This document shows, piece after piece, positions 60,266-62,271 of a stretch of 64,000 nucleotides of DNA (the first letter of the stretch is position 1; each line of letters starts with the position of its first letter). The translations under genes were made by a program, and so were the position numbers. The notes under the pieces are model-generated. The model made no database searches. It saw only the letters and a program-made list of their open reading frames with translations, and was not told the DNA's origin. Where the stretch lies: NCBI GenBank assembly GCA_025363715.1, contig JANYLR010000031.1:19380-83379 (forward strand), read 5' to 3'. Source of the DNA: Holophagaceae bacterium. GTDB taxonomy: Bacteria > Acidobacteriota > Holophagae > Holophagales > Holophagaceae.

Positions 60266-60628
60266 ATGTTCACGAAACTCATCGGTGCCGCCACCCTCTT
60301 CGCGGCGGGGTCGCTCATGGCGGGAAGCTCGACGACTCTGGGCGTTACGCCCATCGAGTCCTTCACTGCGGAATCTGCCTTCACGCAGGCTGGGGAATGC
60401 TCCGCCAAAGAGGGCAAAGAGGAGGGCAAGGCCCCCGCCAAGGGGAAGGAAGGCAAGGCCAAGGACGGCTCCTGCGGCAAGGGCTCCTGCGGGAGCAAGG
60501 ACAAGAAGGCCAAGAAGGACGGCTCCTGCGGCAAGGACAAGAAGGAAGGTTCTTGCGGCAAGGACAAGAAGGAAGGTTCATGCGGCAAAGACAAGAAGGA
60601 AGGTTCTTGCGGCAAAGACAAGCAGTAA
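60266..60628 (+). CDS. Putative MNIO-type RiPP precursor (HvfA/bufferin-like): signal peptide plus Cys-rich repeat tail
   Basis: MFTKLIGAATLFAAGSLMAGSS signal; tail with six GSCG motifs plus one ECSAKEG; directly upstream of DUF692. Confidence 0.85.
   Translation: MFTKLIGAATLFAAGSLMAGSSTTLGVTPIESFTAESAFTQAGECSAKEGKEEGKAPAKGKEGKAKDGSCGKGSCGSKDKKAKKDGSCGKDKKEGSCGKDKKEGSCGKDKKEGSCGKDKQ
60518..60625 (+). repeat. Four tandem 27-bp units encoding [D/E]GSCGKDK(K/Q)
   Basis: GACGGCTCCTGCGGCAAGGACAAGAAG, then three near-identical GAAGGTTC[T/A]TGCGGCAA[G/A]GACAAG[A/C]AG units. Confidence 0.97.
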
Positions 60629-60644
60629 GCGGCCGGGAGCGGCC

Positions 60645-61496
60645 ATGACTCAGGGCAGGTTCACCGGGGTGGGGCTGGGGCTTCGCCGTCCACATCTTGA
60701 GCAGGTTGCGGGAATGGAGGCGCACGGCGTGCCCTTCTGGGAAACCTGTCCTGAAAACCTGATCGGGGATGGCGGTCGGAACCATCGGTTGGCCTGCGCC
60801 ATCCTCGACCGCGATCCCGTTCTCACCCACGGGCTGGCCATATCCGTGGGGGGGTTCGATCCCTGGGATGACGAGTACCTTCGTGACCTGGGTGACTTTC
60901 TCCTCCGAACAGAAACCCCATGGCATTCCGAACACCTCTGCTTCACGTCCGTGGATGGCAGCAGCCTGCACGAACTCATGCCCCTGCCCTTCACCCGGGA
61001 GGCCGTGCGGCACACCATCGCCCGGGCCAGGTCGCTGCAGGCGCGACTGCCTGTTCCCCTGCTGCTGGAGAACATCACCTACTACGCCGAGCTGGGGGCC
61101 GCCGAAATGGACGAGGCGGATTTCATCACGGCGGTGCTGGAGGGTGCGGATGCGGGCTGGCTGCTGGATGTCAACAACGTCTACGTCAACTCGCTCAATT
61201 TTGGGTTCGACCCGAAGGAGTGGTTGGCCCGCATGCCCCTGGACCGCGTAGCCCAGCTCCACATCGCAGGACACAAAAAGTTCGGCGAGCTAACCGTGGA
61301 TACCCACGGGACTGATGTCATCGATCCCGTCATCGAGCTCATGCAGTGGACCCTCCGGCGCCTCGGGCGCCCCGTGCCGGTGCTTTTGGAACGGGACAAT
61401 CACATCCCCGATTTCGAGGCGCTGCTGGCGGAGCGGGTGCGGATCCAGCAGGCCTATGACGCGGCCTTGACGCTGTGCGGCCATCGCCATGACTGA
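60645..61496 (+). CDS. DUF692 multinuclear non-heme iron-dependent oxidase (MNIO)
   Basis: GVGLGLRRPHLEQV, PFWETCPENLIGDGG, SVGGFDPWDDEYL, HSEHLCFTS, LLLENITYYA, WLLDVNNVYVNSLNFGFDP, HIAGHKKF, DTHGTDVIDPV, LLERDNHIPDF. Confidence 0.95.
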   Translation: MTQGRFTGVGLGLRRPHLEQVAGMEAHGVPFWETCPENLIGDGGRNHRLACAILDRDPVLTHGLAISVGGFDPWDDEYLRDLGDFLLRTETPWHSEHLCFTSVDGSSLHELMPLPFTREAVRHTIARARSLQARLPVPLLLENITYYAELGAAEMDEADFITAVLEGADAGWLLDVNNVYVNSLNFGFDPKEWLARMPLDRVAQLHIAGHKKFGELTVDTHGTDVIDPVIELMQWTLRRLGRPVPVLLERDNHIPDFEALLAERVRIQQAYDAALTLCGHRHD

Positions 61497-62271
61497 ATCG
61501 CGAACGCTCCGGCTGCAGCGGGCCATGGCGGCCCTGGTCCTGGATGCCGACGAGGACGCCCTTGTGGCCGATCCCGGCCGCCTGGCCCGGCGCCTGGAGC
61601 TCTCCGGAGCCGACCAGGGCTCCTTCCGGGATCAAGGGCCAGGGATGCTGACCTACCGGGAGCTGGCCCGCATGAGCCTCCTCGAGCCACTGGAGGAGAT
61701 GTTCCCGGTGCTGAAGGCGCTCCTGGAGGAAGCTGGCGTCTGGAGCACCTGTGTCCAGGCCTTCCTGGATGCCCGGATGGTGAGGAGCAGCCACTACCGG
61801 GACATCGCCCCGTCCTTCCTGGGCTGGCTGGCGGCCACCGGTTGGGGCCAGGACCGCTGGCCCTTCCTGCTTGAACTGGCCCACGCGGAAATCCTGGAAG
61901 TGGTGGTGGCCCGGTTTCCCGATTCTGATCCACTGGACGGCCTGCATGCAGACCCTGGATCCGACGATCTCGTTGTCATGGATCCGGCCACCCAGGTGGT
62001 GTCGTACGCCCATGCCGTTCATCGCGTGACGGAGGCAAGCCCGGTTCCCGAGGCCCGCCCCACTCAGCTGCTGGCCTTCAGGAACGCCGCCGGTGAAGCC
62101 CGCGTGCTGGAGCTCACCCCGGCCACCGCCGCCCTGCTGGTGCAGGCGCAGACCCGCACGTTGGCCCAGGCTGCCGAGGCCTTGAACCTGTCCGATCTTG
62201 TCCCGGTGATGAATCTTTTGCGTGACCTTCACCGCGATGGAGCCATCGCGGGATTCCAATCCCCCACCTAG
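61489..62271 (+). CDS. DUF2063-like RiPP partner protein (HvfC/BufC-like)
   Basis: Position downstream of DUF692 with overlapping start; RLQRAMAALVL...YRELARMSLLEPLEEMFPVLKALL...HYRDIAPSFLGWL. Confidence 0.75.
   Translation: MTESRTLRLQRAMAALVLDADEDALVADPGRLARRLELSGADQGSFRDQGPGMLTYRELARMSLLEPLEEMFPVLKALLEEAGVWSTCVQAFLDARMVRSSHYRDIAPSFLGWLAATGWGQDRWPFLLELAHAEILEVVVARFPDSDPLDGLHADPGSDDLVVMDPATQVVSYAHAVHRVTEASPVPEARPTQLLAFRNAAGEARVLELTPATAALLVQAQTRTLAQAAEALNLSDLVPVMNLLRDLHRDGAIAGFQSPT

What the first reader, a model, noticed from the sequence alone, without database searches (positions are those of the whole stretch)
60266..62271. MNIO/DUF2063 RiPP locus with a non-standard Cys-repeat precursor
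Seen: a 120-aa ORF with a Sec-type signal peptide and a tail of six GSCG motifs plus one ECSAKEG, followed by a DUF692 enzyme and an overlapping DUF2063-like gene. Established: DUF692 (MNIO) enzymes with a DUF2063-type partner modify cysteines in secreted precursors (HvfABC, bufferins), where EGKCG motifs become copper-binding thiooxazoles. Inference: this locus makes a metal-binding, Cys-modified peptide, but with a GSCGKDKK repeat instead of EGKCG, so product chemistry or metal preference may differ.
Basis: partly seen in the sequence, partly recalled or inferred. Interest (0 to 1): 0.92.

Follow-up and report, generated by a model that had tools for sequence, protein, structure and literature searches.

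The report
Geothrix thiooxazole-type peptide gene cluster
This is a real bacterial gene cluster that most likely makes a secreted, cysteine-modified, metal-binding peptide of a recently described class; its cysteine repeat is spelled differently from the textbook version, but probably not different enough to give a new chemistry.

Summary
The window (a Geothrix-group MAG, Acidobacteriota) carries a 120-aa secreted precursor with six GSCG motifs, an MNIO (PF05114, E=7e-87) and an 8-bp-overlapping DUF2063/RRE partner. The partner's AlphaFold model finds NGO1945 (3DEE) and TglI as its only significant PDB matches. Precursor and enzyme co-occur in 34/34 MNIO-positive Geothrix-genus genomes, and the precursor is absent from 13/13 MNIO-negative ones. 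The operon continues with YceI, an ECF sigma factor and a zf-HC2 anti-sigma factor. A two-box element, GT[C/A]ACA-N15-GCAC[C/T], precedes the precursor in all 23 upstream regions examined; its exact form occurs once in this assembly. The enzyme tree places Holophagaceae MNIOs as sister to the HvfB/Lys-Cys (EGKCG) enzymes, not to bufferin enzymes. Best reading: an HvfABC-like ("captophorin") cluster that turns GSCG cysteines into 5-thiooxazoles, probably to buffer copper or another soft metal. GSCG is a variant spelling of EGKCG. A Pseudomonas aeruginosa plasmid cluster with canonical HvfB/HvfC has a precursor mixing EGSCG and EAKCG, and published FonBC work tolerates Ala, Arg or Thr at the Lys position. 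"Different chemistry or metal" is possible but not indicated. Side finding: cores diversify strongly in this enzyme clade (PRCGRRCA with R16L enzymes; radical-SAM hybrids).

The parts
60124..60149 (+). Putative ECF-type promoter: GTCACA (60124-60129), 15-bp spacer, GCACC (60145-60149), 142 bp before the precursor start
   Evidence: GT[CA]ACA-N15-GCAC[CT] in 23/23 precursor upstream regions, spacer always 15; only match in the 64-kb window (0.19 expected); only exact match in this assembly. That it is bound by the local sigma factor is inference.
60266..60628 (+). Precursor peptide (120 aa): Sec-like N-terminus, Cys45 in AGECSAKEG, six GSCG core motifs
60467..60613 (+). Core region with the six GSCG motifs; Cys spacing 5, 13, 9, 9, 9
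60645..61496 (+). MNIO (DUF692, HvfB-like) maturase
   Evidence: PF05114 6.7e-87; HvfB model 270.6 bits (cut-off 360), BufB 250.7 (cut-off 310); best PDB match 3BWW; conserved metal and catalytic residues; tree
61489..62271 (+). DUF2063 / RRE partner protein (HvfC-like, PME1)
   Evidence: PF09836 and NGO1945_C over cut-off; HvfC model 100.5 bits, below its cut-off of 142; AlphaFold pLDDT 85; Foldseek hits 3DEE E=2e-5 and TglI 8hi7_A E=5e-5
62286..62906 (+). YceI-family protein, recurrent neighbour of the core genes; role unknown
   Evidence: PF04264; next to DUF2063 in most Geothrix loci and in the radical-SAM-type cluster L094
62948..63565 (+). ECF sigma factor
   Evidence: Sigma70_r2 / r4_2; orthologue of 78% identity or more in 17 other genus genomes, on the MNIO contig in all but one
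63562..63819 (+). zf-HC2 anti-sigma factor with an HxxxCxxC zinc motif (HLLFCRVC)
   Evidence: PF13490 25 bits against a cut-off of 22.2; motif
59710..60111 (+). DCC1-like (DUF393) thiol-disulfide oxidoreductase upstream; frequent but not constant neighbour, probably not part of the core
   Evidence: PF04134 3.3e-17; absent in several contexts

Best explanation
The locus is an HvfABC-like (captophorin) RiPP cluster. Steps: (1) envelope or metal stress inactivates the zinc-finger anti-sigma factor; the freed ECF factor transcribes the operon from the conserved GTCACA-N15-GCACC promoter (inferred from conservation and from Caulobacter sigma-F precedent). (2) The precursor is made with its signal peptide still attached; the DUF2063/RRE protein binds its N-terminal part and activates the MNIO's mixed-valent diiron site (inferred from HvfBC). 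(3) The MNIO uses O2 to oxidise the Cys of each GSCG by four electrons to a 5-thiooxazole, -4 Da per Cys, up to six or seven per chain (inferred from homology). (4) The modified Lys-rich peptide is exported through Sec and binds Cu(I) or another soft metal in the periplasm (inferred). Shown here: gene content, conservation, co-occurrence, promoter element, active-site residues, enzyme phylogeny, partner fold. GSCG is a variant of the [E/D]GKCG core, not a new kind of substrate.
For: Family and fold assignments. Invariant E37, H62, H97, E142, D175, N177/N178, H206, H210, D219, H221, E249, D251, which take in the HvfB residues N175, D242 and H244 shown essential (PMC13419390), their equivalence taken from the conserved LDVNN and VDTHG motifs, and the catalytic Asp of FonB (PMC13097082). 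Arg14-Arg15, counterparts of FonB Arg15-Arg16 that receive acidic residue 1, conserved together with [D/E]G-SCG. Tree: Holophagaceae MNIOs sister to Lys-Cys enzymes, 100/99. Co-occurrence 34/34 vs 0/13. A P. aeruginosa plasmid cluster with bona fide HvfB (406 bits) and HvfC (282 bits) has a precursor mixing EGSCG, EAKCG and EGNCG, and also carries ECF + zf-HC2 genes. FonBC tolerates position-3 Ala, Arg and Thr and fully modifies DGKCG. Every Geothrix-genus genome has COX1-family hits, so O2 chemistry is plausible.
Against: Serine at position 3 was not itself tested in FonBC, and those assays used repeats 5 residues apart; here most Cys are 9 apart. The FonB Phe250 equivalent is Asn here. The HvfA profile NF050137 does not detect the precursor, and HvfB/HvfC models score below cut-off. 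No DoxX gene beside the cluster. No metal-transport gene beside it to tie it to copper. The COX1 family also includes nitric-oxide reductases, so the O2 argument is indirect.
Confidence: 0.78

Rival explanations
1. The Geothrix MNIO clade has diverged in its substrate pocket and installs a different modification, or modifies only some Cys, giving a product with another metal preference.
For: The FonB Phe250 equivalent is Asn/Ser/His in the Holophagaceae clade instead of Phe, and cores in this clade vary widely (GSCG, DHKCGK, PRCGRRCA, GSCGAGSCGG). Enzyme models fall below the HvfB and BufB cut-offs.
Against: The same Asn goes with GKCG-type cores in sister loci L055-L057, so it is not tied to Ser. 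FonB F250A and F250D still install 5-thiooxazole (PMC13097082). All catalytic residues are kept. Every characterised MNIO-PME1 cluster installs 5-thiooxazole, per that paper.
Confidence: 0.12
2. The peptide is a thiooxazole RiPP but serves oxidative or sigma-factor signalling (thiol/redox sensing with ZAS anti-sigma and DCC1-like neighbours) rather than metal buffering.
For: A ZAS-type anti-sigma and a DCC1-like thiol-disulfide oxidoreductase lie close by; no metal transporter is adjacent; copper induction failed for one EGKCG cluster in Microbulbifer (PMC12538549).
Against: DCC1 is not constant across contexts. Caulobacter sigma-F-driven MNIO operons respond to heavy metals and not to ROS generators (PMC3511200). 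Copper contributes to gig induction in Cupriavidus (PMC10304878).
Confidence: 0.2
3. The small ORF is an ordinary unmodified Cys/Lys-rich secreted metal-binding protein and the MNIO acts on something else.
For: Low-complexity sequence; no direct proof of modification.
Against: The precursor is immediately upstream of the MNIO in every complete Geothrix GSCG locus in at least two genomic contexts, and co-occurs with it 34/34 vs 0/13; the N-terminal half is conserved as well as the Cys; the same layout is experimentally validated for HvfA, FonA and MmrA.
Confidence: 0.04

Closest known systems
HvfABC / oxazolin (Haemophilus) and fontiphorin FonABC (captophorins, Lys-Cys group)
   Same: Order secreted precursor - MNIO - DUF2063/RRE partner; [E/D]G-x-CG repeats with one C-x4-C pair at the same spacing; RR pair and catalytic residues; enzyme sister clade
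   Different: Ser for Lys before Cys in all six repeats; most repeats spaced 9 residues; Asn for Phe after the catalytic Asp; no adjacent DoxX; below NCBIfam HvfA/B/C cut-offs
Pseudomonas aeruginosa pPALO11 cluster (CP075839.1, 38997-42758)
   Same: ECF + zf-HC2 + precursor with EGSCG motifs + MNIO (45% identity) + DUF2063
   Different: Mixed EGSCG/EAKCG/EGNCG core that still matches the HvfA domain; Phe at the 250 site; DoxX present; ECF only 31% identical and placed upstream
Bufferins (Buf1 DUF2282, Buf2 6/12-Cys)
   Same: MNIO + DUF2063 + ECF/anti-sigma layout in Buf1 (PMC12452194)
   Different: No DUF2282 match; Cys arrangement unlike Buf1/Buf2; enzyme outside the Cys-Lys/DUF2282 clade; anti-sigma is zf-HC2, not NrsF
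Caulobacter sigma-F regulon (CC3254-3257, CC2907-2905)
   Same: ECF factor driving an MNIO operon from a two-box promoter (GTAACC-N16-CGAA, PMC3511200)
   Different: Different -10 box and spacing (GT[C/A]ACA-N15-GCAC[C/T]); the ECF gene lies inside the same gene string here

Membership tests
MNIO superfamily (PF05114) | Profile match over cut-off with iron-ligand and catalytic residues | tested here: met
   291.5 bits vs 25; residues invariant
PME1 partner (DUF2063 + RRE) | DUF2063 domain and NGO1945/TglI-like fold | tested here: met
HvfA family (NCBIfam NF050137 / NF050188) | Curated KCGExKCG repeat profile | tested here: not met
   no match for the window precursor; positive controls L060, L113 and L114 match
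HvfB / HvfC equivalogs (NCBIfam) | Score over curated cut-off | tested here: not met
   270.6 of 360 and 100.5 of 142 bits
Captophorin (MNIO-PME1-dependent 5-thiooxazole RiPP) | MNIO + PME1 + Cys-rich precursor encoded together | tested here: met
Captophorin (MNIO-PME1-dependent 5-thiooxazole RiPP) | 5-thiooxazole installed on Cys; metal binding | not testable with these tools
   needs co-expression, MS, UV-vis
Lys-Cys captophorin subgroup | Lys immediately before Cys in a 5-mer repeat | tested here: not met
   all six repeats are GSCG
Lys-Cys captophorin subgroup | Enzyme Arg15-Arg16 and Phe250 | tested here: inconclusive
   both Arg kept, Phe is Asn
Bufferins Buf1/Buf2 | DUF2282 domain, or enzyme in the Cys-Lys/DUF2282 clade | tested here: not met
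Sec-exported precursor | N-terminal signal peptide with cleavage site | tested here: inconclusive
   n- and h-region visible and conserved; no SignalP available

The most novel reading that the evidence does not exclude
Holophagaceae hold a distinct clade of MNIO enzymes that lost the Phe250 specificity residue and whose substrates radiated into several core types (GSCG, DHKCGK, PRCGRRCA with R16L enzymes, GSCGAGSCGG with an added radical SAM enzyme), some giving products other than the EGKCG 5-thiooxazole pattern.
Probability: 0.15. Interest if true: 0.65.

Novelty: new variant of a known kind. Interest (0 to 1): 0.4.

Why it matters
It extends the HvfABC/captophorin type of cluster, described mostly from Pseudomonadota, to Geothrix and relatives (Acidobacteriota) with a Ser-Cys core that the curated HvfA profile misses. 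It offers natural enzyme-substrate pairs (RR with acidic-GSCG, RL with PRCGRRCA) for testing which MNIO residues read the core sequence, and a conserved single-target ECF-like promoter that could reveal the inducing signal.

Tried and rejected
(1) Paired substitution: I asked whether loss of Phe250 tracks the Lys-to-Ser change. It does not: Asn252 also goes with GKCG/HKCG cores, so the claim was dropped. (2) Oxygen paradox (O2-dependent enzyme in an anaerobic genus): COX1-family hits in all 47 genus genomes make this weak, though that family also holds NO reductases. (3) DUF2063 partner by sequence against PDB: no usable hit; solved by fold instead. (4) GSCG as lineage-unique: within 396 Acidobacteriota genomes the dyad is essentially confined to Geothrix plus one relative, but EGSCG exists on a Pseudomonas plasmid, so uniqueness was rejected; a Pseudomonadota-wide scan could not be centred. 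(5) ECF dedicated to the operon: the orthologue is at the locus in most genomes that have it, but several clusters with the same promoter lack a local ECF and a ~50% paralogue is present in nearly all genomes, so the sigma-promoter assignment stays inferential. (6) DCC1-like and GDT1 genes as cluster members: not conserved across contexts.

Full report
Observation. The precursor is 120 aa, begins at the ATG at 60266 behind a GGAGG, and carries Cys45 (ECSAKEG) plus six GSCG motifs spaced 5, 13, 9, 9, 9. No ORF in 50 shuffles of the window had more than two G[ST]CG. The MNIO matches PF05114 at 6.7e-87; the third gene matches DUF2063 and NGO1945_C above their cut-offs. Its AlphaFold model (pLDDT 85) has only two significant PDB matches, NGO1945 (3DEE) and TglI of TglHI (8hi7), both MNIO partner proteins.

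Source and conservation. Relatives are Geothrix and other Holophagaceae (Acidobacteriota). In the genus sample the MNIO is present in 34 of 47 genomes. A profile of the precursor (A1) finds a precursor in every one of those 34 and in none of the 13 others. Some of the negative genomes are incomplete, but the set includes a single-contig genome listed as 100% complete (G040). The precursor, MNIO and DUF2063 genes stay together while the neighbours change: many loci have GDT1-DCC1 upstream and YceI-ECF-zf-HC2 downstream, others have neither. The core unit is therefore the three genes, with YceI and the sigma pair as frequent partners. YceI also follows a different MNIO cluster type in L094.

Promoter. 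Aligning 23 precursor upstream regions shows one block kept in all, GT[C/A]ACA, exactly 15 bp, GCAC[C/T], at about -139 to -150, including loci whose upstream genes are unrelated. It also occurs upstream of other precursor types (L093, L095-L097, L106, L107, L030). It is the only match in the window (0.19 expected) and the exact form occurs once in the whole window assembly. By my count from that table, 27 of the 34 MNIO-positive genomes have an exact site at the MNIO locus; elsewhere sites are scattered and the reversed control pattern gives similar background numbers. This looks like an ECF-type promoter and parallels Caulobacter sigma-F, which drives MNIO operons from GTAACC-N16-CGAA under heavy-metal stress (PMC3511200). 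That the local ECF factor is the one that binds is inference: clusters without a local ECF gene keep the element.

Enzyme. The residues corresponding to HvfB N175, D242 and H244 (essential, PMC13419390), matched through the conserved LDVNN and VDTHG motifs, the catalytic Asp (FonB D249, PMC13097082) and the other conserved ligand-type residues are all present. The Arg-Arg pair that receives the acidic first residue of EGKCG is present; the residue after the catalytic Asp, Phe in Lys-Cys enzymes, is Asn. A maximum-likelihood tree puts the Holophagaceae enzymes in one clade, sister to the Lys-Cys/HvfB enzymes with support 100/99, apart from the Cys-Lys and DUF2282 enzymes. The tree tool warns of long branches, so exact order inside should not be over-read.

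Is GSCG a different substrate? Four lines say it is a variant of the known core. (a) Sister Holophagaceae loci carry DHKCGKDMKDGKCGKEHKCGK cores that end in DASCGKGSCGSKN, so both spellings occur in one peptide. (b) A P. aeruginosa plasmid cluster with canonical HvfB (406 bits, cut-off 360) and HvfC (282 bits, cut-off 142) has a precursor with two clear EGSCG repeats plus HEGSCG, EAKCG and EGNCG, and it matches the HvfA domain model (32 bits, cut-off 19.5). It also sits with an ECF + zf-HC2 pair. (c) FonBC accepts Ala, Arg or Thr at the Lys position, modifies DGKCG fully, and needs a small residue after Cys (PMC13097082); Ser itself was not tested. (d) FonB F250A and F250D still make 5-thiooxazole. 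I therefore expect -4 Da thiooxazoles on the GSCG cysteines.

Mechanism (shown vs inferred). Shown: gene content, conservation, co-occurrence, promoter element, conserved active site, partner fold, phylogeny. Inferred from characterised relatives: signal peptide doubling as leader (HvfA, PMC13419390), HvfC-type activation of a mixed-valent diiron centre, four-electron oxidation of Cys with O2, Sec export, soft-metal binding, ECF/anti-sigma induction. O2 supply is plausible since every genus genome has COX1-family hits, with the caveat that this family includes NO reductases. Copper is the likeliest ligand by analogy (PMC13097082, PMC12538549, PMC10304878), but nothing at this locus names the metal.

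Membership. The locus meets the gene-content definition of MNIO-PME1 RiPP clusters. It does not meet the curated HvfA model or the HvfB/HvfC equivalog cut-offs, and it is not a bufferin by domain or tree. I file it as a new variant that works like HvfABC.

Within the family. The same enzyme clade pairs with other cores: Arg-rich PRCGRRCA repeats with enzymes in which the second Arg is Leu (L100, L103, L104), and GSCGAGSCGG precursors with a radical SAM/SPASM gene between precursor and MNIO (L094, L105). These are more unusual than the finding itself and deserve their own study.

Noticed in passing
L094 (G008:C1:8900-12600) and L105 (G066:C1:528300-532200): Hybrid clusters in which a radical SAM/SPASM gene lies between a GSCGAGSCGG-type secreted precursor and the MNIO, overlapping the latter; L094 continues with DUF2063 and YceI. 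G008 also carries the ordinary GSCG cluster.
   Followed up: partly
L100, L103, L104 (G050, G059, G066): Arg-rich precursors (PRCGRRCAGVPRCGGRRCAG repeats) beside MNIOs in which the second Arg of the RR pair, thought to hold the acidic first residue of EGKCG, is Leu: a possible natural enzyme-substrate co-variation.
   Followed up: partly
L093, L095-L098 (genus genomes G001, G019, G021, G028, G043): A second MNIO system with a different leader (MNR...LATLFAAGA), few Cys (DAKCGK, then KDASCGKGSCGS at the C-terminus) and His after the catalytic Asp; four of the five loci share the GTCACA-N15-GCACC-type element.
   Followed up: partly
window 62286-62906: YceI-family gene recurs next to MNIO clusters of two different types; YceI is not among the usual partners listed for bufferin or oxazolin clusters in PMC12452194.
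   Followed up: partly
L119 (Rhodanobacter denitrificans plasmid NZ_CP088981.1): DUF2282-MNIO-DUF2063 genes lie directly upstream of merT-merP-merC on a mercury-resistance plasmid, suggesting a mercury role for some bufferins.
   Followed up: no
window 59710-60111: DCC1-like (PF04134) gene overlaps the end of the GDT1 gene by 22 bp and probably uses a GTG start; conserved in many Geothrix upstream of the cluster.
   Followed up: partly
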